64,000 bases of DNA from Lamellibrachia satsuma (taxonomy: Eukaryota > Annelida > Polychaeta > Sabellida > Siboglinidae). Below are positions 8,521 to 43,831 of the stretch, piece by piece. Position 1 is the first letter of the stretch; each line of letters begins with the position of its first letter. The notes beneath the pieces are model-generated. The model saw only the letters and a program-made list of their open reading frames with translations. It was not told the origin of the DNA and did not search any database. The position numbers and the translations under genes are program-made. The stretch is from the NCBI GenBank assembly GCA_033239005.1, contig BSQZ01000015.1:6761001-6825000 (forward strand), given 5' to 3'.

Positions 8521-10240
8521 TGGGAAATGGGAAGTTGAGACCCCTGTCACACCCCACTAACTAGTCTCAGTGAGATGGGAGCTTGAGACCCCTGCCACAC
8601 CCCCACTAACTAGTCTGAATGAGATGGGAGGTTGAGACCCCTGCCACACCCCCACTAACTAGTCTGAGTGAGATGGGAGGTTGAGACCCCTGCCACACAC
8701 CCACTAACTAGTCTGAGTGAGATGGGAGGTTGAGACCCCTGCCACACACCCACTAACTAGTCTGAGTGAGATGGGAGGTTGAGACCCCTGCCACACCCCC
8801 ACTAACTAGTCTGAGTGAGATGGGAAGTTGAGACCCCTCCAACACCCCCACTAACTAGTCTGAGTGAGATGGGAAGTTGAGACCCCTGCCACACACCCAC
8901 TAACTAGTCTGAGTGAGATGGGAGGTTGAGACCCCTGCCACACACCCACTAACTAGTCTGAGTGAGATGGGAGGTTGAGACCCCTGCCACACCCCCACTA
9001 ATTAGTCTGAGTGAGATGGGAGGTTGAGACCCCTCCAACACCCCTACTAACTAGTCTGAGTGAGATGGGAAGTTGAGACCCCTGCCACATCCCTACTAAC
9101 TAGTCTGAGTGAGATGGGAAGTTGAGACCCCTGCCACACCCCCACTAACTAGTCTGAGTGAGATGGGAGGTTGAGACCCCTGCCACACACCCACTAACTA
9201 GTCTGAGTGAGATGGGAGGTTGAGACCCCTGCCACACCCCCACTAACTAGTCTGAGTGAGATGGGAGGTTGAGACCCCTGCCACACACCCACTAACTAGT
9301 CTGAGTGAGATGGGAGGTTGAGACCCCTGCCACACCCCCACTAACTAGTCTGAGTGAGATGGGAAGTTGAGACCCCTCCAACACCCCCACTAACTAGTCT
9401 GAGTGAGATGGGAAGTTGAGACCCCTGCCACACACCCACTAACTAGTCTGAGTGAGATGGGAGGTTGAGACCCCTGCCACACACCCACTAACTAGTCTTA
9501 GTGAGATGGGAAGTTGAGACCCCTGCCACACACCCACTAACTAGTCTGAGTGAGATGGGAGGTTGGGACCCCTCCAACACCCCCACTAACTAGTCTGAGG
9601 GAGATGGGAGGTTGAGACCCCTCCAACACCCCCACTAACTAGTCTGAGTGAGATGGGTAAGTTCAGACCCCTGCCACACCCCCACTAACTAGTCTGAGTG
9701 AGATGGGAGGTTGAGACCCCTCCAACACCCCACTAACTAGTCTGAGTGAGATGGGAAGTTGAGACCCCTGCCACACACCCACTAACTAGTCTGAGTGAGA
9801 TGGGAGGTTGAGACCCCTGCCACACCCCCACTAATTAGTCTGAGTGAGATGGGAGGTTGAGACCCCTCCAACACCCCTACTAACTAGTCTGAGTGAGATG
9901 GGAAGTTGAGACCCCTGCCACATCCCTACTAACTAGTCTGAGTGAGATGGGAAGTTGAGACCCCTGCCACACCCCCACTAACTAGTCTGAGTGAGATGGG
10001 AGGTTGAGACCCCTGCCACACACCCACTAACTAGTCTGAGTGAGATGGGAGGTTGAGACCCCTGCCACACCCCCACTAACTAGTCTGAGTGAGATGGGAG
10101 GTTGAGACCCCTGCCACACACCCACTAACTAGTCTGAGTGAGATGGGAGGTTGAGACCCCTGCCACATACCCACTAACTAGTCTCAGTGAGATGGGAGGT
10201 TGAGACCCCTGCCACACCCCCACTAACTAGTCTCAGCGCA
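8521..10240. repeat. 49-bp minisatellite, about 35 copies, with higher-order structure
   Basis: Unit ctagtctgagtgagatggga, then ggttgagacccctgccacac and cccactaa. Variant pairs (ctaattag; cacatccctac) recur exactly 833 bp, i.e. 17 units, apart. Confidence 0.95.
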
Positions 10241-10674: not shown

Positions 10675-10779
10675 TGCCTCCCAGATGGACCTCAACACAG
10701 CCATAGAGGAGGCAGTCGTTGCTCTCAATCTCTTTCTCAACAACAAGTTCTCCGAGGCACGGCAACGGGTTGAACCATG
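10675..10779 (+). CDS. TTC39: TTC39 visible exon 1
   Basis: It encodes MDLNTAIEEAVVALNLFL and then NNKFSEARQRVEPW, the conserved N-terminal helix pair of the family. A good acceptor (ttcttgcag) precedes 10675, so an upstream exon is likely; the first in-exon ATG is at 10685. The donor is ATG/gtgggt, leaving two bases of the Trp codon that the next exon completes. Confidence 0.85.
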
Positions 10780-13700
10780 GTGGGTACTCCAGGAAATACC
10801 ACAGACATTAAAATATAGAACATGTGACCAATGTTTTGAAGAATTATGGTGTCTTAGGAGTCAAGTAGTACAGTATTTAGCCTTGGACAAGCTATGTGAT
10901 TTAATTTATTAATTTATTAATTAATTTATTAAATTAATTACATTTTATTTCTGTGAATATTTAGAAAATTAGGGCAGTGTATCTACGCAATACATTTTGA
11001 TTATCAAATTCTAGAACGGCAAGAAACATAATGAGTAATCTTCGAAAATAATATGCATTTGGAATGTATTCTGCAAAGGTGTGCTTTCTGATCTCCATAG
11101 GCCTTTTCAATGACTAAAGTATGTTTACATTATTACTGATCACAACAGTTTCTGTTGAAAAAGAACCAATGCATGTGTTAATGAATGAGTGACTATGATA
11201 TGCCAAATACCATGTAGCCTTCCATATCTCATATATGGCACAAGATATTGAAGGAACCGGACCATTATTGATCTTTATTAGCAGTAATTTCTTTGTGGGA
11301 TCAGGCAGGATGCTAATTCCTGGTCACAGCTGCTAGGGACCGTCTGCCTTCTACCTTGTTAGTGACTTGTGTGTTTGTAGGGCTGACAGCAGTATGTATC
11401 ATGCTCTGTGCTATGGGACCATCATGTACCTTGTTAGTGACTTGTGTGTTTGCAGGGCTGACCGCAGAATGTATCATGCTCTGTGCTATGAGACCATCAT
11501 GTACCTTGTTAGTGACTTGTGTGTTTGCAGGACTGACCGCAGTATGTATCATGCTCTGTGCAATGGGACAATCATTTACTTTGTCAGTGACTTTTGTGTT
11601 TGCAAGGCTGACAGCAGTATGTATCATGCTCTGTGCTATGGGACCATCATGTACCTTGTTAGTGACTTTGCAGGGCTGACCGCAGTATGTATCATGCTCT
11701 GTGCTATGGGACCATCATTTACCTTGTTATTGACTTGTGCGTTTGCAGGGCTGACAGCAGTATGTATCATGCTCTGTGGTATGGGACCATCATGTACCTT
11801 GTTAGTGACTTGTGTGTTTGCAGGGCTGACCGCAGAATGTATCATGCTCTGTGCTATGAGACCATCATGTACCTTGTTAGTGACTTGTGTGTTTGCAGGA
11901 CTGACCGCAGTATGTATCATGCTCTGTGCAATGGGACAATCATTTACTTTGTCAGTGACTTTTGTGTTTGCAAGGCTGACAGCAGTATGTATCATGCTCT
12001 GTGCTATGGGACCATCATGTACCTTGTTAGTGACTTTGCAGGGCTGACCGCAGTAGGCATCATGCTCTGTGCAATGGGACCATCATTTACCTTGTTATTG
12101 ACTTGTGTGTTTGCAGGGCTGACAGCAGTATGTATCATGGTCTGTGCTATGGGACCATCATTTACCTTGTTAGTGACTTGTGTGTTTGCAGGGCTGGCTG
12201 CAGTATGCATCATGCTCTGCGCAATGGGACCATCATTTACCTTATTAGTGACTTGTGTGTTTGCAGGGCTGACCACAGTATGTATCATGCTCTGTGCTAT
12301 GGGACCACCATTTACCTTGTTAGTGACTTGTGTGTTTGCAGGGCTGACAGCAGTATGTATCATGCTCTGTGCTATGGGACCATCATTTACCTTGTTAGTG
12401 ACTTGTGTGTTTGCAGGGCTGACAGCAGTATGTATCATGCTCTGTGCTATGGGACCATCATTTACCTTGTTAGTGACTTGTGTGTTTGCAGGGCTGACTG
12501 CAGTATGTATCATGCTCTGTGCTATGGGACCATCATGTACCTTGTTAGTGACTTTGCAGGGCTGACCGCAGTATGTATCATGCTCTGTGCTATGGGACCA
12601 TCATTTACCTTGTTATTGACTTGTGTGTTTGCAGGGCTGACAGCAGTATGTATCATGCTCTGTGCTATGGGACCATCATGTACCTTGTTAGTGACTTGTG
12701 TGTTTGCAGGGCTGACTGCAGAATGTATCATGCTCTGTGCTATGAGACCATCATGTACCTTGTTAGTGACTTGTGTGTTTGCAGGACTGACCGCAGTATG
12801 TATCATGCTCTGTGCAATGGGATAATCATTTACTTTGTCAGTGACTTTTGTGTTTGCAAGGCTGACAGCAGTATGTATCATGCTCTGTGCTATGGGACCA
12901 TCATGTACCTTGTTAGTGACTTTGCAGGGCTGACCGCAGTATGCATCATGCTCTGTGCAATGGGACCATCATTTACCTTGTTATTGACTTGTGTGTTTGC
13001 AGGGCTGACAGCAGTATGTATCATGGTCTGTGCTATGGGACCATCATTTACCTTGTTAGTGACTTGTGTGTTTGCAGGGCTGACCGCAGTATGTATCATG
13101 CTCTGTGCTATGGGACCATCATTTACCTTGTTAGTGACTTGTGTGTTTGCAGGGCTGACAGCAGTATGTATCATGCTCTGTGCTATGGGACCATCATTTA
13201 CCTTGTTAGTGACTTGTGTGTTTGCAGGGCTGACCGCAGTATGTATCATGCTTTGTGCTATGGGACCACCATTTACCTTGTTAGTGACTTGTGTGTTTGC
13301 AGGGCTGACAGCAGTATGTATCATGCTCTGTGCTATGGGACCATCATTTACCTTGTTAGTGACTTGTGTGTTTGCAGGGCTGACAGCAGTATGTATCATG
13401 CTCTGTGCTATGGGACCATCATTTACCTTGTTAGTGACTTGTGTGTTTGCAGGGCTGACCGCAGTATGTATCATGCTCTGTGCTATGGGACCATCATGTA
13501 CCTTGTTAGTGACTTGTATGTTTGCAGGGCTGACCGCAGTATGTATCATGCTCTGTGCTATGGGACCATCATGTACCTTGTTAGTGACTTGTATGTTTGC
13601 AGGGCTGACCGCAGTATGTATCATGCTCTGTGCTATGGGACCATCATGTACCTTGTTAGTGACTTGTATGTTTGCAGGGCTGACCGCAGTATGTATCATG

Positions 13701-16700
13701 CTCTGTGCTATGGGACCATCATGTACCTTCAGGCAACGATGACATTTGAAGCTGTAAGTAGCCTTTTCATCCTTTGTCTTGTTAGTATTCTAAAGAAACT
13801 GGCAGTGACAGAGCCATGTTCTTTTTCATTGTTCACCTTTGCAAAGATTCCTTGTAAGATTAATCTGCAATTGTTTTCAACATTGTGAAGTGTGAAAGTA
13901 ATTTTAAAATAGAATCTGTTGACATTTTGAAAATGTATACCATATAATACGTGCATGCATGCACATGCAGCATGGACATGCATCTAAATTGACATGTCAT
14001 GCCAATCTTGTTAGCATAAATTGATTCAGTTTGCACTTGCTGCATTCAATTATGATTGAATGTGCATGTAAGGAAGCCATTCAGAGGCATCCACCTTAAA
14101 GGGACTAACAACAAGACACTAACTTAAATGCCTTTTCAGTGTGTACACAAAGTTTAATATTGTATGTACTATATGCCAAAATAAAATTAAAAAAAAAAAT
14201 ATTTATAGGTAAAATTAGATGTTTAATGTGTCTAACTCGCAAAGTGTGCGTAAAATTCAATAAAGTTGATGAGATGAATGATCACATGGTTTTGTGATAT
14301 CACTGATGATATGAGTTTACATTTAGTCACTGATTTCTATGCAATGCTTCAGTAGTTTCACTCGCGTCACAATTGTGAGTGATGGCGATGTCAATTTTTC
14401 AGAATAAAAACATACACATGTGACGTGGTCAAAACATTACTCTTACTTCCATATAGAGATCGAAATTTACAAAAACATGCCATCTCCTATGCCTAGCTTC
14501 GTGGAGCTAGGAATAGAAGATATAGCTAGCTTTTGTTTTTGTTATTTGTTATTGTTACATGGAAGTAAGGGTAATGTTTGACCACATCACATGTGTATAT
14601 GTGTGGTGATTTTGGCCCTTGGTGAATTAGGCCCAGCTGCCATGTGCATGAATCCGGTCACATTATAGTGTGAATGGGAGGTGAATTCGGCCGATGTTAT
14701 TTTGGCTTGGTGATTTCGGTGACTGAGGTGACTCACAAGATCTACTTTGTTCTAACTAGTAATGGATTAGCCTTCACTTTAAGGGTTTGTTATTCCTGTA
14801 CTTGTCAACAAAGAGACGCCAAGTTCAAGATACTGTAGAAGTGCAATGCTTTGTCTGTTTCATACAGTGAGCAGGTGTGAATAAAAGACCATGCTTCACA
14901 TTCAAAATGATCTGACGAAAAACACTGTTTAGATCAAAGACCATATGCAGGTGGCTCTGTTGTATTCACAATACAATAATCGCTTATCACTCTCGTTGCT
15001 CTGTATTTTATTTAATTGAGCAAATTTCTGGGGAGAATTTTCCCTGATGAGGGGAAATGCATGAAAATCTGAAATACAGAAACAAAATATGATAATTTTA
15101 ATTTAATTTATTAAAATTATTCAACTGTATATGATATTATAGTTTTTGGTGTAATATATTATATGCTATGAATTTTAAGGATACAACGAATTGTATAAGT
15201 TCTAATGATTGTCTTGCTGACTGCATATTAAATTGGTAAAATATAGCGCCGTATTTTATGCGAAAGGAAGCAAAAGCTATAAGAGTGGTTACAAAGTAAC
15301 ATTTTCGGGTTAATGTGGAACTAAATAAATTAACAAATGAGAGAATATATGCTTTATTCACAGTAAGACACACACTAAACTTCATATGCTCAATGCACTG
15401 AGACTGAAGTCACCAAAGTTGCAGGCTGAAGTTTCCAAAGAATGCTGTCCTAATTCACCAGGTTGAATTCACCGTGCACTGACATCACCTGTATCCCTGC
15501 TGACAGCTCACTTCAATCCGAGGTGCACCATGGTTATCGACGCCTGTGTCGCTGTCTGTGTTCTATGGATTGATGGCATCAACACAGCTTCCACTACTGA
15601 GAATAATGTTGACACAACATCCTCTTTCAATGAGATTCTAGCACCAGGAAACCCAGAGCCGCCATCTTCTCTGGTCCGAATCGCAGTTGAAACAAGTTTT
15701 CTTGAAGTGAGCAAAGCCAGCTGTGCTTCATCGACTTAGACCAACTACATGTCACTCTATTATTACTACAGTTTGCATTACAATCGAATGCTGTACAATA
15801 AACCATTCTGACGCTCGCTTGTCAACAAATGACATGAATGAATGAATGGAAAGTCTGTCATCAATGATGTCACATTAAAGCTTGCCAATAATCATGGGAA
15901 AATATGCGTAATCGAGGCACGCTGGTAGAACAGGGTATTATTTAGAATTATTAATTGAATTCTAATGAACTTTTTGGTGTTGTGGAAATAGATGTAAATA
16001 ATATTTTTTCAAGCAATCATTGTTTTTATTCCATTTAACAACCTGCACATCAATTTGTAGTAGTGACAATGGAAATTGCTTTACCAATTTCACACATAAT
16101 AATAACTTCTATGGTACCTATATCCTCAGGAACCTGAGGTCAGAGGCGCAACAAAACAGAATCTTAATGATCATGAACAGGGATGCGCAAAAGTCATTAA
16201 AAGAACGAGGGACGAGTTTTTTTGGAGATAGCTATAGTTTAAGATGTTTTCAGAGTGATGGGGAGGTCATTCCAGACCCTAGGTGCAGCTACAGAGAAAG
16301 CATGTTTGCCCAAGTTAGATCTGATCTGCCTAGGGATATTTGAAAGGAGACTAGCCAAGTAGGATGGTTGCTGTGTGATGTGAGAGTGGACAGCTTAAAA
16401 TTAATTTGATAAGTAACAGGAAGCCGGTGTAACTGCTGAATTAGTGGTAATGATGGTGAAAACCGAGGCACCCTGAGTACCACACGTGCCAGACAATTTT
16501 GTACTCATTGGAATTTAGCTAAGTCTCTTTTAGCAGTGTTATTTAGTAGTGAATTACAATAGTCAAAGTGGCTACTAATTAGTGCCATTGATATTGTTTT
16601 AGCTGTAGATATATATATGTGATGCCGAATTTGATAGAAACAGGATTTACATACTTCAGAAATATGCAGGTGAAAGTTGAAGTCACTATCAAAGACAACA

Positions 16701-19700: not shown

Positions 19701-22700
19701 GTTAAATCTGGTGTCTCCCTGTATTGGATGGCTACGCCGTGGCATAGTTATGTTAAATCTGGTGTCTCCCTGTATTGGATGGCTACACCGTGGCATAGTT
19801 ATGTTAAATCTGGTGTCTCCCTTTATTGGATGGCTACGCCGTGGCATAGTTATGTTAAATCTGGTGTCTCCCTGTATTGGATGGCTACGCCGTGGCATAG
19901 TTATGTTAAATCTGGTGTCTCCCTGTATTGGATGGCTACACCGTGGCATAGTTATGTTAAATCTGGATAAGTCAGTGACAATTTTACATGTCGACATTTA
20001 AAAAATTACAAATCGCCCACTGGTAGTAATAAAAAAAGGAATAAGATACGTTCTTAGATATCGCTGTATCCAAGTCAAAACACTACACTTCACCCCTGGC
20101 CTGTTCATTCCAACACCAACTCAACTTTTCTGGGAAGCTTTCAGCCACTGCTACCACGCACCACAATATATATAATATATAATGATACATCATTAAATTT
20201 GGTGTGCATTATAAGATATGTTGTCAGCGTTTTTTTTGAAGGACCACATTTTGTTTGTGACGTTAGTTAGCAGTACATTGAGGACATGTTATCTTCTGCT
20301 TATATTTAAGGCATTAGATAGCAACAGCATTCTGCAAAATGGTTGTCAAAAGTCTGATTTGTTGCATGTCAGTTCTATTCAAAAATATGCATATGAATAT
20401 AAACATCACTATCTGGTTATTTATATAAAAGATTCACAAGATAGTCATGTTTATGAAGTTTGCAACGTTTAATAATACATAGGCCCACCTGTGTGTTAAT
20501 GAAGCACTATGTGTGGGGGCAGTGGCTCAGTGGTTGGAGTGTGGGACTGTTAGTCAAGAGGACAGGACTTCAAATTCACCTGTTGCCATTTCAGAGCTTG
20601 AGCAACTTAATTTGCCCCACTTTGCCTTTGTCTTTTGGATGTAATACTAAAGGCCAGATCTACCTGATGCCAAGGGAAGTCAAATATCCCACACGAATAA
20701 ATGTCATGGAAAAACCTGCACTAGACCAAGAATGTGCTGCTTGGAATAAACAAACTGAGAATTGAGTATTGTGTGATTGTGTTGACAGAGAGACATACAG
20801 ACGGCCGTGACGGTGGTGAAGAGATCTCTGCAGGTCTGCAACCAATACCGCAAGAAGACGTCAGTGATTGGGTCACTCACTCCCGGAATGAAGACCAACT
20901 ACAACAGCTACACGGCAGGTGGGAACACTTACTTGCATGCGGGTCATCTACGTATATTTTGTTATGTTCAGGTACCACACCAGATACTGTTTCTAATTAT
21001 TAATCTTTTTGTAAGTCATTGTGTCTGCCAGGAGGTGAAGTGTTAAGTCAACGTGTCTGCCAGGAGGTGAAGCGTTAACTCAATGTATGTACCAGGAGGT
21101 GAAGTGTTAAGTCAACGTGTCTGCCAGGAGGTGAAGCATTAACTCAATGTATGTACCAGGAGGTGAAATGTTAAGTCAACGTGTCTGCAGGAGGTGAAGT
21201 GTTAAGTCAACGTGTCTGCCAGGAGGTGAAGTGTTAAGTCAACATGTCTACTAAGAGGTGAAGTGTTAAGTCAACATGTCTGCCAGGAGGTGAAGTGTTA
21301 AGTCAGTGTGTCTGCCAGGAGGAGAAGTGTTAAGTCAACGTGTGTACCAGGAGGTGAAGTGGTATGTCAATGTGTCTGCCAGGAGGTGAAGTGTTAAGTC
21401 AACATGTCTGCCAGGAGGTGAAGCGTTAAGTCAACATGTCTACCAGGAGGTGAAGTGTTAAGTCAACGTGTCTACCAAGAGGTGATGTGTTAAGTCAACA
21501 TGTCTGCCAGGAGGTGAAGTGATAAGTCCTAGAGAACAAGATAATCACTCTATATAGGAACCCACACCTTTACATGGAAGTCTTAAAATAGTAATGTTTT
21601 ATACATTATCATTCCTGGTTTGTCAATTAATAAGTATTCCATAAATTATTCAATTAGGCATGATGCTTCACAATGCAGGAAATCTAAGAGGTACTTACCT
21701 CCCATGAATGTCATTTACTGGTATTTCATATTATAAAATGCAAGTGTGTCCAAAATCAGTTGGACATATTTATACATTATCATTCCTGGTTTGTCAATGC
21801 TGTATAAACACCTTGGTAGTGTGTTGTTCTTTCTGGTTTCAAAAGCACTTTCTTAGATGACCTCACAACATTTCTTTCACATTGCCATAAATTTGCTGTG
21901 TCAGTATTAATGTTGTATGTCAGTTTGCTGGGTGGTCTGGTATTTCTTAAGGCTTTTTACATTGCTTCTGCTTTAGCAATGAAACATACAGTATCATTCT
22001 TGCTTGAGACCATCTTCTTATAATACTTAAGAAAATAATTAAGAAATTGTTTATATAAAATCTTGGGACATACCATACAAAAAATCTTCCCACTTGGTCC
22101 GTTGCGGGGGGGCACATAACTTACTTTGTTCCACCCACTCAACGAATTGTCTCCATCCATCACGCTCTTCTTTCATTCTAGATATATAATATTTATAAAA
22201 GTAGTATAATGTAATAACTCATATGTTTAGTGTTTGTCCTCTTTGTCCAGAATGTGTCACACAGTACATATTTCTGTCACCAGTGGTAATATGACCCTTC
22301 AGCTGTAGCAAATAAATATATGACTGTCTTGCTAGAGTTTGATAACAGCTTATTACATTCCCTATGAATATTCTTTCTTATGTATCAAAATGATTTAGGC
22401 TTTAGTTTAACATATGTCTAAGATATCTAACTGTAGGTTCCCATTATGTTGTTGTTGACTTGAGATCGTTATGTATTGTTTACATAAGATCTTTATATGT
22501 CTCAGTTATGTTGGTTTTTTACATCAGCAATATTGTTAATGTTTCAGCAGTGCATAGTTTATGTACTACAGTTTTCATAGGATATGTTTATAATGAAATC
22601 TTGGTAGTTCTGAGAAGCCTCCTGACCCCACAGCTTGTAAAGGTCAACCCATCTGAAGGTGTTTGTGGTAATGTCATATACTGATAGGTCATTTAATGGG

Positions 22701-25700
22701 TTGAATAATATCTGTAAATATAAGTTTTATGGCTGATGATGCAAGTGAAACATGTGTGAGAGAAGATATCAGGGATGTGTACCACACAACTGCTGTCAAC
22801 ATTTCCTCAAAATCCAGTCTTCTGCCACTTTCATAAAGTGCTGTTAATTAATGCATCATGTAATTCAAACAACCAACTAGACGAAAATTGTATCGACATA
22901 ATTGTAGGAATTAGAAGATTTTAATAAATTTTCAGACATTGTTCAAATGGTTTATTAGTTACCACATATTTGAGGTGTTTGTTGGATGAAAGTTGAGATT
23001 GTAATAAAATATTGTAACATATTGTAGCCGATGTTGTGTGCTTCTCAGACTGACAAAAGATGGTGTCATTGAAAACACCAAAAGTAAAGTAAAGGATTCA
23101 TGAACTAAGACTGTTAGCTGTTACTGCGCAACTGAATAAGAAAATAGTGATGCTATTTTATATTTTATATATTTGTTAAACATTCTGTTTCATGGTAAAG
23201 TGTAGTGAACCTCTTATTTATCTGACTGTATAATGACATTTTTTTGAGAAAGAAAATGTACAGGAATCATTATGTTTGTTGAATCAATTAGTTATTGAGG
23301 GTGTTAAAATTATTTAGTGACTTAGATAGTGAAAGGGGTGCAGTTGCAATAGACTAGCACAGTCATTCTAGACATCTTTGTTGCAGAGGAGATCCACGCA
23401 GAACTGTGCTATGCCGAGTGCCTAATAGAGAGAGCCATCCTCAGTTTCATCCAAGACGAGAACCTCATCAGCTTTGTCAAGGGCAGTCTCAAGATACGTG
23501 CCTGTCAGCAGTCCTACAAGTAAGTGTGTATGATGAGCATGTCAACACTCCTAGAAGTAAATGTATAAAATAGCCTGTCAGCAGTCCTACAAGTAAGTTT
23601 GTAACATGAGCCTGTCAACATTCCTAGAAGTAAGTGTGTAAGATAACCTGTCAGCAGTCCTACAAGTAAGTGTGTATGATGAGTCTGTCAGCAAGTAGAT
23701 ATGTATGATGAGCCTGTGAGCAAGTAGTTGTGTATGATGAGTCTGTCAGCAGTCTTACAAGTAGGTGTGTATGATGAGCCTGTCAGCAAGTAGACGTGCA
23801 TGATGAACCTCTTACCAGTCCAAAAAGAATACATCTATAGTGAGCTTGTTAACAAGCCTGACATTTATTTTGCTTTAGACCTTGTTGGTAAATCTGATAG
23901 AACACATGCAAACAAAACATTTTAGTAGAAACAGGCAATACAGAGTGCACACAGAATGCACACTGGTAAACATCCTGTCTCTATATATGCAGTAGCTTGG
24001 AGATGTCCTGCCTTCCAGGACAATTGATGTACATTTAATGACAAGTGTTTGACAATAAATAGTGGCAGTAGGACCAGAGTGCACTGTATCGAAGCAGTTA
24101 ATTTCATTTATGTTCAATCTAGCTGTTATCTGCTACAATAAAATCTGTACTGAGCTATGGAGTATACTTGTGTGAACATATGTGCATGCACGTATATGTA
24201 TTTACATTGTGAGTGAAAATGCAATTTATTATATCCAGACAGAAATATGATCAATGTTGACATTAAATGTATCATAGTTGTGACATCAATTGATCACATA
24301 AACATCACACCTATAGGCTCTGCTTGCAGGTACTACAAATTAAATATTGATTTCATCTGTGCTTCAAAATCAATCCATTTTGTAAGTAATTATTTATCTT
24401 GATTTGTTTATGTTTAATTACCTCGCCTGACGATGTTAGGAGTAAAGTAATAAACAAACAGACAGAAGTATTCCCTGGATCAGAGATCTTATGCATTCCA
24501 ACATTGTAACTGATATCGTGACTTGTCCAGGGGTAAATCAAACACCTCAACTGTTTATGTAGACATCCAGGTAGTCAACTTGTGATGTCTCAGTGGTGGC
24601 CTAACGTGTGGGACATCAACAGCTATAGGAGGAGTCCTGGGTCTGCTGATTAATGAAACTCATAAACCCATTTCTGCCAATACAGGAAGACACGATTTAT
24701 CATCGTAAACAGTTGTAAGCCAAACATGAAAGTGGTTCATTTGTCACAGGACAGAATCAGGCAGAAAAACAAACATTGCTAAAGCTACGTGTCCCTGTCG
24801 ACTTACAGATGATTCAATACAGCTGTTGTTTCATGTGAGAAAATAATACACCCCAAATCCTTCTGCTTCTTAGCATGCAGTGCTGTTCATTACATAAAAA
24901 CATACCTGGGTACTGCTTCACTAAGATTCTCATGAGTTTGTCAGCATGATTTTGCTCTTAAAAATGGATTTTACTCTTGCTTTTGATCAAAAAAGAAAAG
25001 TGTGTCATTTAGAATCATAAAAATCACTCCTAAGAATGCTTTTTATTAATGATGAGGTAAAGCTGCTCTATAGCTATTTTACATCCATCCTAAAACAGTC
25101 AAATGTCGCCAAGGTCAGTGTTGTTAGAGAAACATTTGCAATTCAATTCTGGGTCAATTTTAAGTTGTATCTAACTCTAAATGCACACAAGAAACATTTT
25201 CAACATAGTGCCCACTGTGGAGTTTATCATTGAAATTTCACTCCTCAAATTGTGGGTGGATTTTATGAGCACCTTAGTTTAAATGCATTTTGCAAATATA
25301 CATAAAAATGAACGACATATTCTGTTTATGATGGATTTTGCTTGACCTCTTTATCTTGGTGAAGTGGGCCCCGTACACAATAACTAGGAACCTCAAGATA
25401 ATGTGATTCACTTACTACGTTATTAATATATAAAAACTAGATATGATATTTGACCACAGGTACAAATGTCAATATAACCTTAACTTGACCTAGGAAAGAG
25501 CTCATTCCTAGTACACAATCACATGATGCCTTAGATAATACTATTTATCATCACCAATAAAGCTATCTTTTTGTCCAGTGAGTATTTGACTAAGTCTGAG
25601 TATTTGACTAAGCCCATGCTTAAATTGAAACATATATTGCTGGGATCAGTAAATATTAAAAGATGGTTAGTAACACTTTGTGCATCTTCTGACTCAGCCG

Positions 25701-28700
25701 AGGATATTTCAGGCCACTGGCAATGAGTGAAAAGGTCTTAAGCAGCAACTTGTATACAACATAATTCATTTTTAATACATATTAACCATTAACTCCCTAG
25801 TACAGATATAGAGCTTAACACCTTTGAGATAAATGTGCTATAATCTGTGAAACCCATTGTTATGCACCTATTATAGACAAGATATTACAATGTTTATAAG
25901 TGCTTAGATTATGACAATATGATCAGATGATTAGTGTAATATTGGTGTGATTACATAGTGTTCAAGAGTAAATATCTGAAACTGAAATGCACACCACCAA
26001 GGTTTTTAAGGCCAGTTGGTTCCAACCCCCGGCCAGTGACCCACCAAGGCGTTTTGTAAAATGTCCAACTGGCATATTGGAAGGATGTCGGAAACGAAGT
26101 TTTTTGGAAGAGACACTAAAAGTCGTAGGTCCGTGGTGGGTACACCAGGGGAAGTAACAGACGCCACACAGAAGGCTAATCTATAACCTGCGGTGCACTC
26201 ACAACCTTTCAAGTGCGTAAATACTTAATTATGAAATAGGCACACCAACCCATATGGAACACAGAACACTAATGTTTCACATGGATCTGTTCATTAGAAT
26301 GCTGTAATTTCCTAAATATTGTATGCTCTTATAGCAGTTTAGAAACATAAAAGCTGTTTGAAGCCACATGACAGTGGTGTCATGTTGCAGGGAGTGTGTG
26401 CGGATCCTGGAACGGCGGCAGTGGCAGGACACGGACAATAAGGTGCACTTTGAGAGTGGCGTGCGCATGGGCAATGGCATGTTTAACCTGGTAAGACTTG
26501 ATACTCTGGCATTGGAAAGCAGTTGCTGGAAGTAGGCAGTAGGCAGTCATTGTAGAGAGTATGCAATGATAACTGATGGGATAGTATGCAGTGACATTTG
26601 AGAGTATGCACTGGTAGTTGACAGTATACAGCTGAGAGTGTGCATTGACATCTGAGAGTATGCAGTGACAGTTGAGAATATGCAGTGACAGCAGAGAGTA
26701 TGCAGTGACAGCTGAGAGTGTGCATTGACAGCTTAGAGTATGCAGTGACAGTTGAGAATATGCATTGACAGCGGAGAGTATGCAGTGACAGCTGAAAGTA
26801 TTCAGTGACAGTTGAGAATATGCAGTGACAGCTGAGAGTATGCTGTGACAGCTGAGAGTATGTCGTGACATCTGAGAGTATGCAGTGACATCTGAGAGTA
26901 TGCCGTGACAGCTGAGAGTATGCAGTGACAGCTGAGAGTATGAAGTGACAGCTGAGAGTATGCAGTGACAGCTGAGAGTATGCAGTAACAGTTGAGAGTA
27001 TGAAGTGACAGCTGAGAGTATGCAGTGACAGCTGAGAGTATGCAGTGACAGTTGAGAGTATGCAGTGACAACTGAGAGTATGCAGTGACAGTTGAGAGTA
27101 TGCACTGACAGCTGAGAGTATGCAGTAACAGCTGAGAGTATGCAGTGACAGTTCAGAGTATGAAGTGACAGCTGAGAGTATGCAGTGACAGCTGAGAGTA
27201 TGCACTGACAGCTGAGAGTATGCACTGACAGTTGAGAGTATGCAATGACAGTTGACAGCATGCACTGAAAGTTGACAGTATTCAATGAGAGTAGACAGTA
27301 TGTTTTGTTGGTGTTGCCTAAACTGCAGTTGTATCAAATGTTCTTCTACTTTCAGTTAATATCGCTGCTCCCTGGTAAAATTCTCAAGCTGCTAGAGTTT
27401 GTTGGCTTCTCTGGCAACAAAGTGAGTGATCAGACATGGGGTTTTAGCAGAATGCATCCATCTAACACTGATGTACACCTATAGCTGTATGTTGGAACCA
27501 TCACCAGGTTTATTGCCAAAATGTATTTGTGAGGACTCACTTCAAATACGTGAGTGTTACAATCAAAGTGTAATTTTCTTGTTTTTGGGTGACTTGCATA
27601 AGCAGTAAATATGTAACAATATTAAAGATGATAGTGTAATTTTAATTAACATTGCTCCAGAACCTAAGCAAATTTATATTTAAAGCTGTTTCCTCAAATG
27701 GTTCAGCCCATCGCACATCTCCAGTTCACTTAGATGTGCAGTGTGTGTTTAAGTAATGGGTGCAGTCATGAATTAGCATTAATTAAAAGCATTAGTTAAT
27801 TTAGTAGTTTGATGATTTCACAAAAACTACATATAAAAGTAGCATAAATTAGCTAGCATGTTGCAGTGGATACTATGTTGGTTTGGTTTTTCGCAAAATT
27901 AATTTGAAATGAGACTAGCAAAATATTTAATTGGTTAAGCACCTTTAAAACCTTTTGGGTCTGCTAGTCATAATGTTATGCTATAAAGAGTAGAAGAACA
28001 TTTTTGAGAATTATGAAAATTTGTGAAGAAAAGCACAGAATGGACCAAGCATATTATACATACCCAGCAAAAACTAACCTGGGCTGCTGTATATGGCAGT
28101 TACTTTGGTGTTGCTAATGACAGACCCTTTATGAAGAGATTCATCAGACTGATAGTTCCAGTGTAATAATCTTTTTCTCATCACAGTCAATTTTAAACTT
28201 TTTCTTTGTTATGTTTCAGCAGCTTTCAGCTTTCTTCATCAGACTGACTACCACTAGATGGCAGCACAGAAGTCACTATCCGCAGATGCTGTCACTTGTG
28301 TGGGCCCCGGCCACGGCCGTCTCTCCCATGTCTATGACGACCTGCTGAGGAGCCACCCAACCCAAGGCCATTTCGTATAGTGACTGCTGTGCTGCCATCT
28401 AGCAGTAGTCAGTCTGATGAAGAAATTTTAAAGCTGCTGAAACGCAACAAAGGAAAAAGTTAAAATTGACTGATATATGAGAAAAAGAGTAATTTATGAA
28501 ATAAGCAACACAAGTCCAATGTAACTGTTAGAGAGAATTGAAATAGGCCAAATGATGATATTTATTATTGGAAAGTGGACTGCAGCCACTTTGGGGACAA
28601 CGATAATAGGAATGTGAGCTCTACAATGTAAACCAGGTACGATGCTGAACGCATGATATACAGCCTTGTCCAAAACTTGAGGTTTCTTAGAGCCCACATT

Positions 28701-30899
28701 CCTACATGCCAGAAGTGACACGTATTCATATACATATACCATACTTGCATCATCCCTATGTGGTAATGGAACTAAAACCATTATGCATATAGATATAAAC
28801 AAATGTGCACAGAATACACTCTTATAAGATGTAACCTTTACTTGCTAACATTCAACCACAAATATACAACTGTAACCACAAACAGGTGAGGCCATTTTGT
28901 CCTCCCCAAACTAACCCGTATAAACATAACTCAGAAATACCGAAGGAGGAGTAGAAAACCTGTCACCGCACTGAAACCCCGCGAACACTTGAGGGGAATA
29001 GACCCGTGTTCAATGCCAAATTGTTGAAAGCATAAAAAATCAGGCATTTTCTAACTTTCCTTCCTACCAACAATTTACAATAGTTCTTTAACTAATCACA
29101 ACAGTTCTTGAGCTAATTACAGCAACACAACGAAGAAAGTTGGGGAAGGAGGGCAGATTCAAAATCAGACTAATTAATAAGCCATAGGCAATCTAGAACA
29201 AAAATACCCATCTGTTATAGCTCATGCCCTGATATTTCTCCTGCAGTTAATTATAATTAATTGCAGAATAGTTTGTCACTTTTAAAACATGTGTAATCAC
29301 CGACACAACGTTACTGATTTAAACTGAACATACAAAACACGACTTATTCTGATGACACAACCTGCAGGATGAAAAGCCTGCCTAAGGCACCCAGGCCATG
29401 TATTGCTGATCTCATAAAAACAGTATGCAGCCATTTGCAGCTTGTTGTATACCTTCATATATAATGACTGACACATTGTATGTTGTTGTGTTTCAGAAGA
29501 AAGGTCTGACAGAACTGGAACTGGGCAGTCGGTTAGAAAAGAGTCTCCGCGGACCACTGTGTACACTCGCTCTACTGGGCTACCATACTGTCGTCACATT
29601 CGTACTGGGTGAGTTCTACATCTATCCCCCATGAAATGGCAATAGCACTGTGGACACACAAAAGAGTCTCCCATGAAATGCAGCTGTTATCAGACATTCT
29701 GCTACCTTTCACACATTAAACATCAATGTCTGCCATTCAGTGCTGCAAATCCTCATGTGTTTTGGTGTAGGTACGGCCACATTCTGTGTGTTTTGTTGTA
29801 GGTACAGCCGAGGGTGACACAAACCTTGCAGACAAATTATTAACAGCTGCTTTGAGAAATTACCCGAAGGTAAGAACTACATCAGTTGCAACTAAATTTT
29901 ACTGAAATAACATATGATATGTTATGTTTTGCATCTCATCAATTTGTAAAAAATGTGGCCTGTTAAAATATTTATGGATACTGATCCTATGGCAAAGTAA
30001 TAGTGCCAACCTGACACATCAATATTGTCAAAACATTGACAGAACAATATTGCCTTCCTGTTCACAAAAGATTTTCTAAAATTATAAATACTACTGAAAA
30101 TTGCAGATTTGATTTGTGGCAAAGGCATTACAAAATATTCTCAGTAAATTAGAATTTTTTTAATTGTAAATCTTGCTCAGCGGCAACTGAATACAAGTGG
30201 AGTCTTCTCCATCACATGGTGTGTAATTGTGTTTCGGGGAGTCTTCTCCATCACATGGTGTGTGATTGTGTTTCGGGGAGTCTTCTCCATCACATGGTGT
30301 GTGATTGTGTTTCGGGGAGTCTTCTCCATCACATGGTGTGTGATTGTGTTTTGGGGAGTCTTCTCCATCACATGGTGTGTGATTGTGTTTATGGGAGTCT
30401 TCTCCATCACATGGTGTGTGATTGTGTTTCGGGGAGTCTTCTCCATCACATAGTGTGTGATTGTGTTTCAGGGGGCAATGGTGCTGTTTTTTGCCGGACG
30501 ACTACAGCAAGTGAAAGGAAACATCAGAGAGGTGAGATACCTCTTCTTATCTGGTTGTCATGGTTACTCCTCAAAAATATTACGTTGTTTTAAGTCCTTG
30601 TGGAAGTAACAAAACCATCAGATTTACCTACTAAATAAGTCTTCTGAGATTCAGGTTTGTAAGATGCATGAGTATGTCAAAATCTTAATATGATTAATTG
30701 TCTGTGAACACCAAAATTTTTCAGATTACAGAATACACTTATAAGATGTAACATGTACTTGCTAACATTCAACATTCAGCCCTATTTGCCTTAACCCCCC
30801 GGTTAGGGTGACAAACCATGCCTAGTAATTTCTGCTATGTTTTAAATAACATATTACTGATGGTAACAAGGATTCCCTTCAGTAGTCTATAATATAACA

Positions 30900-30947
<48 letters not shown>

Positions 30948-33900
30948 CACACACAGACTGCTAAAAATCTTGGTATTCATTAGTAATTTGTTGTCTTTAA
31001 TTTGTAGGCGATATTGAAGTTTGAGGAGTCGATCAACTCACAGGAGGAGTGGTGTCAGTACCATCACCTGTGCTTCTGGGAGCTCATGTGGTGCCACAGG
31101 TCAGTTACATGTGTAGTGATACATCTAGTGACATGTCCATTGACACATCTCGTGACATTTCCAGTTACACGTCCTTTATCATGCATTTACAAATGTAGTG
31201 TTTGTTACATTATGTATGTTGTAGTTAAAATGTATTGTTTGTTATATTATGTATGTTGTAGTTGAAATGTTTTGTTTTCAAGGCACCCAACTAGTTGATA
31301 TGAAATTCTATTATTCTTATTTTTTAGTTTATTTGTTATGTTACAATTACTATAATTTATATCACATTGTCACCATGGTGATGGAACTTTATAGGTACGT
31401 GTAGTGCAGATACCAGTAGGTTGTCATGGAAATACATTGGAATGTGTAGTACAGATACTAATGCATTGCCATGGAAACATGTTGTAGTTTCCTTGGTGAC
31501 TGGTTGCTGGCGATGAAGTACGCTGAGAAGTTATGTCAAGAGAGTCAGTGGAGCAAGGCAATCTACACCTTCCAGAAGGCATCCTTCCTCATGATGTGTG
31601 ACGACCAGACAGTCGAGACACACGCACATATCACCTACCTCTTCAGGTCGGCTCATCCTTAATAATAATAAACATTGTTTATTCATGATAAACCTTATAA
31701 AATATTAACTTTGTAAGGGTTGTGTGTCTATAACATGAATATACTGGTAAATATATGTAGCATTGCCTATAATTAAATAATTACATAAGAGAGTATATTA
31801 TAAAATGCAGTAAAGGTACATTAGAAACAATGGATTCAAATATGTTTTTTTTTTTATGTATTGCTTGCCAAATTGGGAATTAAGAAAGATGAATATTCTG
31901 AGTCTGAGCAGTTGGCTAGCCACATGATGAAGTGGGTTCTTAAGTTGTGATGAACCAAGTTTAATAAACCTTACTGTTCTATAATTTCTTGACAAGAACC
32001 ACTATCGTGTTAAAAAATGTCACCCATAGTCACAAATAAAATTACTATCACACATGTTGTGGTTAGTTTCATAATGCAGATGGCGTTTATCTCTCGATGT
32101 TTATTGCTGTCTGCTAATACAAAAATTAGATCTGTGACTTGAACCATCTTCTTTTCTGTCTCTCAAAAATTTATTAAATTTATATCTAAAATTGTCATTC
32201 AATGTCATTCCTGCCACTCATTAATTTATCATAATCAGTTTAGATGAAACTACAGGAGAACTACCTTGGGGAACTGTTCAACTGTTCATCTTGTGTGATG
32301 TAATCCCTCAGACAGTGGCTCATAAGATGCTCTCCTGCTTCAGTGAGGTGCCACGACTAAAGCAGAAGATTGCAGGAAAGTCCATTCCCGTTGAGAAGTT
32401 TGCCGTCAAGAAGGCACTCCGCTACATCGAACAGAACCATCGACTCACACTGCCGGCTTACGTGAGTCTAGCATCACCTAAGGCATCACTTACTGTTAAT
32501 GTATTTTCTTACTAGAACCCTTGGAATGTCTGATCATAAATTACATTCTCTATAAGTCCAATAGTAATAATTTTCAATGTAAAAATGATAATCCCAGGTA
32601 AGGACGAAGCTACTGAATAGCCTGCTCCGCCAAGAGACTTTACAGCTTTCCGGTGAATCTTCCATGTGATTCTATGTGTCATAAGGGACTGAGACTATTC
32701 AGTTATACACATGACTGTTTGGGAGCGAGATGTGTTGTAGTTGTGGTGATGTGTATAGGTATTGCCCATTGCCTGCAGGAGATCATCTATGTGTGGAATG
32801 GCTTCAACATCTTGGGCAAGAAGGAGGGGTTGTTGAAGCCCATCATCAGCACCGTGGAACAGACACTCAATGTTATAGTGCAACATCCCGGTGAGGAACA
32901 TTGGTGGTTGCAGTTAGACAGCAAGACGGCCACCGAGGTCGAACTCCGCTGACTCCAACCATCTGTCTCCAGACGCCTGTGTCCCTCATTGCTGTGTGCA
33001 ACTCTCCAGGCTCCATACTCCTCTGTCCCTCATTGCTGTGTGCAACTCTCCAGGCTCCAGACACCTCTGTCCCTCATTGCTGTGTACAACTCTCCAGGCT
33101 CCAGACACCTCTGTCCCTCATTGCTGTGTGCAACTCTCCAGGCTCCATACTACTCTGTCCCTCATTGCTGTGTGCAACTCTCCAGGCTCCATACTCCTCT
33201 GTCCCTCATTGCTGTGTGCAACTCTCCAGGCTCCAGACACCTCTGTCCCTCATTGCTGTGTACAACTCTCCAGGCTCCAGACACCTCTGTTCCTCATTGC
33301 TGTGTGCAACTCTCCAGGCTCCATACACCTCTGTCCCTCACTGCTGTGTTCAACTCTCCAGGCTCCCAACACCTCTGTCCCTTATTGCTGTGTGCAACTC
33401 TTCAGGCTCCAGACACCTCTGTCACTCATTGCTGTGTGCAACTCTCAAGACACACATCTTGTTTTAGACAGTCAATCAGTGTAAATGCCAGTCTGCCTTG
33501 GCTTAATCTTGTATGTAACTTTGTTCATTCCACTGTAGAAGTTGCCAGTGAATTTTTACAGTGGTTCACAATATGCTTTATGTAATATCCATTTACTTGG
33601 TTTTTGAGTGCTTTTGTTCCAGTACTGGCTAATGTGACATTGCTTTCATGTAATAAATGTGAAAGAAGTATGTTCAATTAACGTAAAATATAATACAACA
33701 ATGTAGTTAGTATGTAAACTGTTGTAACGTGCCAGGTCACAGCATCGCAGCATAGAGTCAGAGACAGTGAGCTATACATGTCACTAGAATTTGTATCACA
33801 GTTTTATTATATTACAGTATTATTGTACTTATTAAAATGTTGACAGCTACAACATTCATCAGCTGTGATTGTTGTTGTTGCTACAGATGACTACATCTAT

Positions 33901-38246: not shown

Positions 38247-40165
38247 GAATGAGTCAACTAGAGAGTAGTGGACAAGACCAATAGCAGGGGGTGATGTTAA
38301 TTACTGCATCATGGCACAGGATGATTATACAATGAGTCAACTAGAGAGTAGTAGACAAGACCAATTGCAGGGGGTGATGTTAATTACTGCATCATTGCAC
38401 AGAGTGATTATACAATGAGTCAACTAGATAGTGGACAAGACCAATAGCAGGGGGTGATGTTAACTACTGCATCATGGCACAGGATGATTATACAATGAGT
38501 CAACTAGAGAGTAGTGGACAAGACCAATAGCAGGGGGTGATGTTAACTACTGCATCATGGCACAGGATGATTATACAATGAGTCAACTAGAGAGTAGTGG
38601 ACAAGACCAATAGCAGGGGGTGATGTTAACTACTGCATCATAGCACAGGATGATTATACAATGAGTCAACTAGAGAGTAGTAGACAAGACCAATTGCAGG
38701 GGGTGATGTTAATTACTGCATCATTGCACAGGATGATTATACAATGAGTCAACTAGAGAGTAGTGGACAAGACCAATAGCAGGGGGTGATGTTAACTACT
38801 GCATCATGGCACAGGATGATTGTACAATGAGTCAACTAGAGAGTAGTAGACAAGACCTATAGCAGGGGGTGATGTTAACTACTACATCATGGCACAGGAT
38901 GATTATACAATGAGTCAACTAGAGAGTAGTAGACAAGACCAATTGCAGGGGTGATGTTAATTACTGCATCATTGCACAGGATGATTATACAATGAGTCAA
39001 CTAGAGAGTAGTAGACAAGACCAATAGCAGGGGGTGATGTTAACTACTGCATCATGGCACAGAATGATTATACAATGAGTCAACTAGAGAGTAGTAGACA
39101 AGACCAATAGCAGGGGGTGATGTTAACTACTACATCATGGCACAGGATGATTATACAATGAGTCAACTAGAGAGTAGTAGACAAGACCAATTGCAGGGGT
39201 GATGTTAATTACTGCATCATTGCACAGGATGATTATACAATGAGTCAACTAGAGAGTAGTGGACAAGACCAATAGCAGGGGGTGATGTTAACTACTGCAT
39301 CATGGCACAGGATGATTATACAATGAGTCAACTAGAGAGTAGTAGACAAGACCAATAGCAGGGGGTGATGTTAATTACTGCATCATTGCACAGGATGATT
39401 ATACAATGAGTCAACTAGAGAGTAGTAGACAAGACCAATATCAGGGGGTGATGTTAATTACTGCATCATTGCACAGAATGATTATACAATGAGTCAACTA
39501 GAGAGTAGTAGACAAGACCAATAGCAGGGGGTGATGTTAATTACTGCATCATTGCACAGGATGATTATACAATGACTCTGTCAATGAGTCAACTAGAGAG
39601 TAGTGGACAAGACCAATAGCAGGGGGTGATGTTAACTACTGCATCATGGCACAGGATAATTATACAATGAGTCAACTAGAGAGTAGTAGACAAGACCAAT
39701 AGAAGGGGGTGATGTTAACTACTGCATCATGGCACAGGATGATTATACAATGAGTCAACTAGAGAGTAGTGGACAAGACAAATAGCAGGGGGTGATGTTA
39801 ACTACTGCATCATGGCACAGGATGATTATACGAGTCAACTAGAGAGTAGTAAACAAGACCAATAGCAGGGGGTGATGTTAATTACTGCATCATTGCACAG
39901 GATGATTATACAACGAGTCAACTAGAGAGTAGTGGACAAGACCAATAGCAGGGGGTGATGTTAACTACTGCATCATGGCACAGTATGATTATACAACGAG
40001 TCAACTAGAGAGTAGTAGACAAGACCAATAGCAGGGGGTGATGTTAATTACTGCATCATTGCACACGATGATTATACAATGAGTCAACTAGAGAGTAGTA
40101 GACAAGACCAATAGCAGGGGTGATGTTAATTACTGCATCATTGCACACAATGATTATACAACACC
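38247..40165. repeat. 83-bp minisatellite, about 23 copies
   Basis: Unit gagtcaactagagagtagtg, gacaagaccaatagcagggg, gtgatgttaattactgcatc, atggcacaggatgattatac, aat. It lies between the convergent TTC39 and FKBP genes. An aberrant junction (atgactctgtcaatgagtc) occurs near 39575. Confidence 0.95.
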
Positions 40166-41887: not shown

Positions 41888-43773
41888 CTGTCAACAGAAG
41901 CTTGTTTGTAAAGGGTTTTCATTTGTTAACTGATTCTTTAATATTCAATTTTGAGTAAATTTTACGCTGAAACTAGCTTCAAATGTACACCTCTAACTTT
42001 CATAACATTTCAGGTAAAACTCAAAAACATAACTTTGGTTGAGGTTGTTGGCGCTCTAAGCAAGCTTGTTATTGAAAACTGTCAAGTCTTCTTTTCTAAT
42101 ATAAATTTTTTCTCATTACCCAGTGAACAAATAAGTCAAATGTGGTTGAAAAGTGATCAATGGAACGATTATCAGACAATTTTCTACTTATTTTGTCCAA
42201 TTGTGTACAGTGGAGATATGAAGAACAATTTTGTTCCTTACCATATGATGGATTTCAAGAGCATCTTAGTAAAATGATCACTAGGCCATATAATACACCA
42301 AACAATGTAACCACGCTAACTATGGAAAGAAATGAAATTAAAGCACCAGACACCTGCAAGATCCAACTCACCCCATTGTGGGAGGAACGGTCAGCTTTCT
42401 CTTACCACCAACTTTCATCCCTACAAGCAAATACAGCAGAGATTGCTACTCAGAAAGCAGGCAATCGAAGGGGGGGGGGGGTGGTACTGGCTGGATTGTT
42501 CAATTGGGGACATGCTTTTGTTGAACAATCCAGAATTAACATGGATCATTGTTTTGGGTAACTTACTAAAGTGTTAATAGCCTTATGTCGTGGCATAGCC
42601 TTATGTCGTGGCAAAGCCTTATGTCGTGGCATAGCCTTATGTCGTGGTATAGCCTTATGTTATGGTACAGCCTTATGTCGCATAGCCTTATGTTGTGGTA
42701 CAGCCTTATGTCGTGGCATATCCTTATGTCGTGGTATAGCCTTATGTCGTGGTATAGCCTTATGTCATGGCATAGCCTTATGTCGTGGTAGTCTTATGTC
42801 GTGGTAAAAATTTAAAAACTCATTTTATGTAGACCTGTAGAATCAGATGGGACACATTCTTTATCATCAAATAGCTAACACATCACTCTACCTCTGGATA
42901 CATACTTAGCAATTTAGCACTTTTTTAAATTAGATTTTGTTTGCTTGTCTCGTTTCACACTCATTTCACAATAAATTGAATCGTCTGGTACCCACCATGA
43001 CAGGCTAACTTGTTGTACAAACTGGTTATTTGGACTGGAACCAGTCAAAAATGGCAAAGTGGCCCGGTTTATATATACTATAACAAAAGACTTTTCACAC
43101 TTGCAATCAAAGTTAATTCTTTCAAAGATTAAACCAACTTCACATATTACTTAAACAATTCTCACACTAGATTTAAAAATCGGCGAACCCAATTTGTGAT
43201 GGGCTAAATCAGTTGACGAGGAAGCATTTAAATGAATATACCATTCAAAAAGTCTTACATTATAAAGTATTTAATTGGCTGGTATCAATGGATGAGTATG
43301 TAACCAGTGTAATTTGTAAGCCACTAAACAGACTAAGGAGTGCTGCAACCTACCACGCAGGCCAACATCCCAGCCTTTGATCACTTCACTCTTGCCAAGT
43401 CGGAACTTGAATGGTCTCGACCCAACATTGGAGTCAAACAACTTGCCACTGCTCTTCACACGACCACTGTAGTAAACATGCACCTGTAAACAAACAGATA
43501 TTGTAAACAGATTGACTGTAAATATAATGTAAATGGATACCTGTAAACAGAGTATGTAAAAATGCCTCAATTCTCTTAATTTTTTATCTCAAAGTTCATC
43601 AGTTAAGTTAGCAATGTTTCATGTGTTATTCTTTATTGCTGTAGTAAATTAACCAACACAAATTGTATAAAACGAGAATTTTATTGATCAATAAACTAAC
43701 TGATAAAAAACGTTATATTTCACCTTCAACGGCGAAGATTTATTGGTCTGTTTTTTATTGCAGCACAGTGGAC

Positions 43774-43831
<58 letters not shown>

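What the first reader, a model, noticed from the sequence alone, without database searches (positions are those of the whole stretch)
11348..13753. A splice acceptor and exon body amplified about 32 times in front of the real TTC39 exon
Each 75-bp unit holds a pyrimidine tract, tgtttgcag, and the first 52 bases of TTC39 exon 2, and only the last unit continues into a full exon and strong donor. In nearly all units I read, the AG is intact. The spliceosome therefore faces dozens of near-identical 3' splice sites for one essential, highly conserved exon. Minisatellites born from an exon-intron junction and kept inside a working gene are not something I know to be described as a class.
Basis: partly seen in the sequence, partly recalled or inferred. 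Interest (0 to 1): 0.9.

Follow-up and report, generated by a model that had tools for sequence, protein, structure and literature searches.

The report
Thirty-two copies of one splice boundary
In a gene of what is likely a deep-sea tubeworm, the DNA at the start of one exon, with its splice signal, is repeated 32 times in a row; splicing is predicted to use only the last copy, and such repeats were already named 'mirages' in amphioxus.

Summary
At 11352-13729 lie 32 head-to-tail units (28 of 75 bp, 4 of 68 bp), each with an intron end, its acceptor and the first 52 bp of a TTC39 exon; only the last runs on into the full exon (13678-13753) and a donor. The AG is in place in 29 of 32 units. The gene is no relic: a 16-exon model gives a 587-aa TTC39 without internal stop, GT-AG at all 15 introns. 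A second array in the gene (23500-23820) repeats a donor boundary.

The claim that the class is undescribed is wrong: repeats spanning exon-intron boundaries are known in amphioxus as 'mirages'. New here are the phylum (nearest named relative Ridgeia, an annelid), the copy number, and a natural control: acceptors 31 and 32 are identical over 150 nt upstream and 52 nt downstream, so only more distant sequence, nearest the last 24 exon bases and the donor, can single out the real site. I favour pairing across the exon (exon definition). A 6-bp repeat at both edges suggests birth by slippage. No transcripts or reads could be examined; splicing outcome and copy number are inferred.

The parts
10675..10779 (+). 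TTC39 exon A of the model (contains the ATG of MDLNTA...), donor CATG|gtgggt at 10780
   Evidence: tblastn with TTC39 relatives and splice-consistent model
11352..13729 (+). Acceptor mirage: 32 tandem units (28 x 75 bp, 4 x 68 bp), intron end plus first 52 bp of exon B; TACCTT at both edges
   Evidence: TRF and unit decomposition
11374..11380 (+). Acceptor TTTGTAG of unit 1, the copy that keeps the old upstream intron context
   Evidence: sequence
13505..13729 (+). Units 30-32, identical to each other; unit 32 is the authentic one
   Evidence: unit alignment
13678..13753 (+). Authentic TTC39 exon B (76 bp), (W)ADRSMYHALCYGTIMYLQATMTFEA, donor GCT|gtaagt
   Evidence: model and tblastn
20789..20918 (+). 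TTC39 exon C, after a 7035-nt intron
23387..23519 (+). TTC39 exon D, authentic donor TACAA|gtaagt
23500..23820 (+). Donor mirage: about 8 units spaced 36-37 or 29 bp holding up to the last 20 bp of exon D and the start of the intron; decoy donors equal to the real one over 9 bases at 23593 and 23666
30199..30474 (+). 39-bp x 7 array abutting the exon I acceptor; the six upstream copies lack the CAG of the real site (not counted as a mirage)
26391..35200 (+). TTC39 exons E-P (12 exons), stop codon at the end of exon P

Best explanation
The array is a minisatellite of 32 head-to-tail copies of the intron-exon boundary of one TTC39 exon, and splicing likely passes over the 31 upstream copies by pairing the exon's own donor with the nearest acceptor across the exon. 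It has the structure of the amphioxus 'mirages'. Shown: structure, intact gene model, near-identity of decoys and real site, drift of the exon copies without sign of protein constraint, a donor counterpart in the same gene. Inferred: (1) birth by a tandem duplication between two TACCTT copies, one in the intron and one in the exon; (2) growth by unequal exchange or block duplication, most recently at the exon edge; (3) silence of the decoys through exon definition: flanking introns are long, the last acceptor gives a 76-nt exon, and the donor-like sites after the decoy exon copies score somewhat lower than the real donor; (4) tolerance because arrays at either end of an exon grow into the intron and leave the exon-side site authentic.
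For: Structure. Gene intact: 16 exons, 587 aa, no internal stop, GT-AG at 15 of 15 introns. Local signals cannot discriminate: 150 nt upstream and 52 nt downstream of acceptors 31 and 32 are identical, and 28 of 31 decoys score at or above the real acceptor with a matrix from the 14 other acceptors of the gene. Introns around exon B are 2898 and 7035 nt; unit 1's acceptor lies 601 nt from the donor. A cross-exon proximity rule for sites flanked by long introns is reported in PMC9225289 (abstract and passages). Decoys not under protein constraint: distinct base changes in the exonic parts are 17 nonsynonymous to 2 synonymous (possible: 117 to 31, plus 8 stops), and 4 units carry a 7-bp deletion. 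The Ridgeia TTC39 entry joins exon A to exon B without inserted repeat, 172 of 179 identical, no gaps; that gene set combined homology, ab initio and RNA-seq evidence (PMC9921365 passages). Edge repeat TACCTT, chance about 0.0017 under a simple model. Mirages do not seem to disturb splicing in amphioxus RT-PCR.
Against: No RNA data. The matrix rests on 14 sites and gives the real acceptor only 2.6 bits, near the low end of the others (2.3-14.4 left-one-out); 65 of 949 other intronic AGs score as high. The real donor (4.4 bits; others 4.0-11.6) is not far above the decoy donor-like sites (23 at 2.8, 3 at 3.7, 5 at -3.3), and 30 of 31 decoy exon copies are followed by GT, so 52-nt decoy exons cannot be excluded. 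The classical cross-intron rule (Reed and Maniatis, as described in PMC9225289) would favour unit 1. The Ridgeia entry is a gene prediction, and whether Ridgeia has the array is unknown.
Confidence: 0.72

Rival explanations
1. Assembly artefact: the array is real but its copy number is inflated, or it is absent in the animal.
For: Blocks of the array are nearly identical (units 5-11 and 17-23 match at 506 of 511 bases; units 1-5 and 6-10 at 361 of 368), which can confuse assemblers. No reads were available.
Against: 20 distinct unit sequences among 32 with nested variant patterns look like true minisatellite turnover; 49 merged arrays cover 23% of the window, so such arrays are common here.
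Confidence: 0.12
2. The array is exonic: an upstream acceptor is used and the 75-bp units add 25-residue repeats to the protein.
For: 75 is a multiple of three and the read-through frame is open near the exon; acceptors 22-31 (10 of 31 decoys) would give in-frame, stop-free exons of 151-826 nt.
Against: Acceptors 1-21 (21 of 31) run into at least one stop; the exonic parts drift without protein constraint (17 nonsynonymous, 2 synonymous); none of the four TTC39 relatives whose sequences I read (P0121, P0134, P0151, P0241) carries the repeat. The search with the 322-aa array frame found 1 protein, the Ridgeia TTC39, matching 12% of it.
Confidence: 0.06
3. The decoys are regulatory: partial use of upstream acceptors makes frameshifted, degraded transcripts and so tunes TTC39 level.
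For: 21 of 31 decoy acceptors would give premature stops, and 28 of 31 are at least as strong as the real one by matrix.
Against: I found no sign of selection keeping the signals; near-identity is explained by recent duplication. No RNA data.
Confidence: 0.08
4. The array derives from a transposable element or a pseudogene rather than from the local exon.
For: A copy of exon F's start does lie elsewhere in the window (43934-43993), so TTC39 pieces can move.
Against: The last unit is collinear with the intact exon; blastn of the unit plus exon found no match longer than 21 bases outside the array in the window.
Confidence: 0.02

Closest known systems
Amphioxus 'mirages' (Adh3, globin BflGb6 and BflGb9, TnC, PGBD5)
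   Same: Tandem units spanning an intron-exon boundary, authentic exon intact at the end, AG/GT kept in many but not all units, both acceptor and donor versions; BflGb6 has this very design, intron 3' end plus 5' part of the exon (PMC3087553 section 16 read; PMC3902484 passages).
   Different: Here an annelid-like genome; 32 units against 6 and 3 in the two BflGb6 haplotypes (copy numbers of Adh3 not seen); acceptor and donor mirage in one gene; the boundary unit belongs to the most homogeneous group (30-32), whereas in BflGb6 the cluster edge is excluded from homogenisation.
Internal tandem repeats at exon-intron boundaries of human genes in segmental duplications (PMC2812944, passages)
   Same: Minisatellite-like repeats at exon-intron boundaries that can change splicing.
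   Different: Those alter transcripts and can create introns through the repeated sites; here use of the decoys is predicted to be avoided.
Polyubiquitin UBC array of dual-specific splice sites (PMC10809524, abstract)
   Same: Tandem array with a splice signal in every unit.
   Different: Coding units bounded by AGGT sites used stochastically; here acceptor and donor-like signals are separate, 52 nt apart, and four units carry frameshifts.
Earthworm metallothionein exon-4 duplications, clone Lr6F14 (PMC12783039, passages)
   Same: Annelid gene with exon duplicates reported absent from the final transcript.
   Different: Two duplicates, one inverted, not a boundary-spanning minisatellite.

Membership tests
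Mirage (boundary-spanning minisatellite) | Tandem repeat unit spans an exon-intron boundary | tested here: met
   All 32 units hold intron end plus 52 bp of exon; 31 cross-boundary matches for exon B's acceptor
Mirage (boundary-spanning minisatellite) | Lies in a gene whose authentic exon and frame are intact | tested here: met
   587-aa model, 16 exons
Mirage (boundary-spanning minisatellite) | Many but not all units keep the splice dinucleotide | tested here: met
   29 of 32 keep AG in place
Mirage (boundary-spanning minisatellite) | Units evolve by tandem turnover (shared variants, block duplication) | tested here: met
   Variant map ABCDEFBCDGHIJKKLEMNODPHQKRKKSTTT; block 5-11 against 17-23 506 of 511
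Mirage (boundary-spanning minisatellite) | Does not disturb splicing of the mRNA | not testable with these tools
   No transcripts; the Ridgeia gene prediction is only suggestive
Mirage (boundary-spanning minisatellite) | Length polymorphism, somatic instability | not testable with these tools
   One assembly, no reads
In-frame protein tandem repeat | Open frame through the whole array under protein constraint | tested here: not met
   21 of 31 upstream acceptors run into stops; 17 nonsynonymous to 2 synonymous changes
Dual-specific splice-site array (UBC type) | AGGT at unit borders acting as both site types | tested here: not met
   Unit reads TTTGCAG|GGCTG...TACCTT|GTTAGT; no AGGT at either border

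The most novel reading that the evidence does not exclude
Mirages are a general way in which minisatellite-rich animal genomes load exons with decoy splice sites, in annelids as in amphioxus; this TTC39 array is a natural 32-way contest between near-identical acceptors, showing that distance across the exon alone can select the last of 32, with the ten nearest decoys all in frame so that slips there add 25-residue modules instead of destroying the protein.
Probability: 0.3. Interest if true: 0.7.

Novelty: new member of a known kind. Interest (0 to 1): 0.5.

Why it matters
How the spliceosome picks one site among look-alikes is an old question; the classical tests used a few competing sites in constructs. 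Here nature supplies a series in which two decoys (units 30, 31) equal the real unit base for base over 75 bp, and acceptor 31 equals acceptor 32 over 150 nt upstream and 52 nt downstream. RNA reads from one tubeworm would test cross-exon against cross-intron proximity directly. It also suggests that mirages, which I have seen in print only from amphioxus (searches in Tried and rejected), arise in other minisatellite-rich animals, and it offers a birth signature (a short direct repeat, one copy in the intron and one in the exon) for a class whose origin was called unclear.

Tried and rejected
RNA structure over 13580-13760 (units 31-32 and exon B): no more stable than shuffles (z 0.84, 162 of 200 shuffles at least as stable), so no fold is proposed to hide the decoys. 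Rfam at gathering thresholds and ARAGORN on the window: no match. Amphioxus as source: my first guess from the mirage literature; set aside after Ro60 and TTC39 matched Siboglinidae best. In-frame protein repeat: rejected as the main reading. Exon I array (30199-30474) as a third mirage: not counted, because its copies do not cross the boundary and lack the CAG. Whole-genome questions (a second TTC39, other mirages): the genome search was busy and never answered. Literature for mirages outside amphioxus: searches, open-licence papers only, and for only the top of a longer list was shown (20 of 757, 12 of 878, 8 of 34). Passages of an amphioxus huntingtin paper (PMC2206037) mention tandem repeats but none at splice boundaries in what I saw. 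The founding 2002 Adh paper and the 2007 PNAS tandem-array paper are not held and are known to me only as cited in other papers and from recall.
Full report
What is there. TRF reports one array of period 75, 32.1 copies, at 11352-13729. Splitting it at a conserved exon motif gives 32 units, 28 of 75 bp and 4 of 68 bp (units 5, 10, 17, 22, which lack 7 bp before the acceptor), with 20 distinct sequences. A full unit reads 23 bp of intron end, GTTAGTGACTTGTRTGTTTGCAG, then 52 bp of exon, GGCTGACCGC...TACCTT. The AG is in place in 29 of 32 units (28 of 31 decoys); units 4, 9 and 21 have TTTGCAAG. Only unit 32 runs on to the end of the exon and a donor (13678-13753, GCT|gtaagt).

The gene. With TTC39 relatives from the protein search I placed exons by tblastn (6 relatives) and fixed splice sites by frame. 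The model has 16 exons over 10675-35200, all 15 introns GT-AG, 587 residues and no internal stop. It is 62% identical to Lingula TTC39B and 96% (172 of 179, no gaps) to a partial Ridgeia piscesae entry that covers exons A to E. That entry shows no insert between exons A and B; it comes from a gene set built from homology, ab initio and RNA-seq evidence (PMC9921365 passages). Exon A has an acceptor before it, so a further upstream exon may exist. The array therefore sits in an apparently working gene. A second TTC39 elsewhere in the genome could not be searched for.

The organism. Its Ro60 gene (62647-63999, minus) is 98% identical to an unnamed ENA protein and 83-84% to two Ridgeia and two unnamed ENA proteins; among the 120 listed of 7467 hits, one at 82% is labelled a Chromatiales MAG (perhaps host DNA in a metagenome), and the next named ones are Lamellibrachia, then other invertebrates. 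Ridgeia is a siboglinid annelid. I take the source as a vestimentiferan tubeworm, species unknown (inference).

How the array evolved. TACCTT stands at both edges: once in the old intron (TCTACCTT) and once in the exon (TGTACCTT before CAGG). A match of 6 bp or more at a duplication edge has a chance of about 0.0017 under a simple model. This fits a tandem duplication between two short repeats (inferred; a partial unit at the array's end would look the same). The variant map ABCDEFBCDGHIJKKLEMNODPHQKRKKSTTT shows block copying, for example units 5-11 against 17-23 with 506 of 511 bases equal. Units 30-32 are identical and 29 differs by one base; difference from unit 32 grows with distance (Spearman 0.41, p 0.02; chance that the three most similar units are 29-31 is 1 in 4495; units are related, so these values are a guide only). 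In amphioxus BflGb6 the cluster boundary is left out of homogenisation; here it is not.

Are the decoys under constraint? Distinct base changes in the exonic parts are 17 nonsynonymous and 2 synonymous, against 117 and 31 possible (plus 8 stops, none seen), so there is no sign of protein-level selection. If a decoy acceptor were used with the real donor, units 22-31 would give in-frame open exons of 151-826 nt, and units 1-21 would each meet a stop; units 5-8 keep the frame at the end but hold stops (for units 4, 9 and 21 I used the shifted AG). This polarity follows from where the four 68-bp units lie and need not mean anything.

How splicing may cope. The 150 nt before and 52 nt after acceptor 31 equal those of acceptor 32; the nearest difference is the next 24 exonic bases and the donor. 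No acceptor feature within that stretch can separate them. With a matrix from 14 other acceptors of the gene, 28 of 31 decoys score at least as high as the real site, and the three without the AG in place score -8.9. The matrix is small and 65 of 949 other intronic AGs also reach the real site's score, so it only says that the decoys are not weaker. Decoy exon copies are followed by GT in 30 of 31 cases: 23 are CTT|GTTAGT (2.8 bits), 3 TTT|GTCAGT (3.7), 4 CTT|GTTATT (-3.3), and the one without GT also scores -3.3; the real donor has 4.4, low among the gene's donors (4.0-11.6). The intron piece between neighbouring units (23 or 16 nt) is too short to be spliced, by general knowledge. Flanking introns are 2898 and 7035 nt. 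In a database of alternative splice sites and in minigenes, sites flanked by long introns are chosen by nearness across the exon, while in short introns nearness across the intron rules, as Reed and Maniatis had found (PMC9225289 abstract and passages; the minigenes shown there tested donors). The first rule predicts unit 32, the second unit 1. Since the gene is intact, and RT-PCR suggests that amphioxus mirages leave splicing undisturbed, I favour the first. This is inference; no transcript was seen.

A second case in the same gene. Array 23500-23820 begins inside exon D and repeats up to the last 20 exonic bases with the donor; copies at 23593 and 23666 have the same 9-base donor as the real one at 23520, six further copies score lower (0.6-8.3 bits against 9.6). 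Of 31 boundaries tested in the model (16 acceptors, 15 donors), exon B's acceptor (31 copies) and exon D's donor (6 at this threshold) have nearby boundary-crossing copies; exon F's acceptor has one distant copy; exon I's acceptor has five matches that do not cross the boundary; the remaining 27 have none. Both real sites lie at the exon-side edge of their array. Arrays cover 23% of the gene span, so an array meeting a boundary is not in itself surprising.

Known or new. PMC3087553 (section 16 read) and PMC3902484 (passages) describe the class under the name mirages in amphioxus, including the acceptor design seen here; the former calls the mechanism of origin unclear. My one paper search for annelids gave one paper, on earthworm metallothionein genes with intronic minisatellites and exon duplicates absent from the transcript (passages). 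The searches cover open-licence papers only. I therefore file this as a new member of a known kind, in what seems a new phylum and with 32 copies.

Noticed in passing
43831-43993: A partial copy of the start of TTC39 exon F with its acceptor region (94.6% over a 37-bp core, AG read as AAG), next to the same 20-bp minisatellite that precedes exon F at 26583-27281.
   Followed up: partly
58216-58318: Three 32-bp copies ending in CAG or TAG directly before a short GPCR-like fragment (7tm_1 E 0.0032, below Pfam's cut-off); the copies and the fragment share CACCT at the join, so it may be a small further mirage.
   Followed up: partly
30199-30474: 39-bp array abutting the exon I acceptor in which the six upstream copies read TTTCGGGG (4), TTTTGGGG (1) or TTTATGGG (1) instead of TTTCAG, the opposite of the exon B array.
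   Followed up: partly
1-64000: 49 merged tandem arrays cover 23% of the window (14877 bp), several over 1.5 kb (8527-10233, 38248-40161, 47783-49551).
   Followed up: partly
62647-63999: Open Ro60 (TROVE plus vWA) frame on the minus strand running off the window end; Ridgeia has at least four listed relatives of it, so the family seems multiplied in tubeworms.
   Followed up: partly
43274-54446: Exon-like pieces with nucleoplasmin-like and FKBP domains on the minus strand, possibly one nuclear FKBP gene with long minisatellites in its introns.
   Followed up: no
28172-28484: Inverted repeat, arms of 132 nt (80% complementary) with 49 nt between, inside a TTC39 intron.
   Followed up: no
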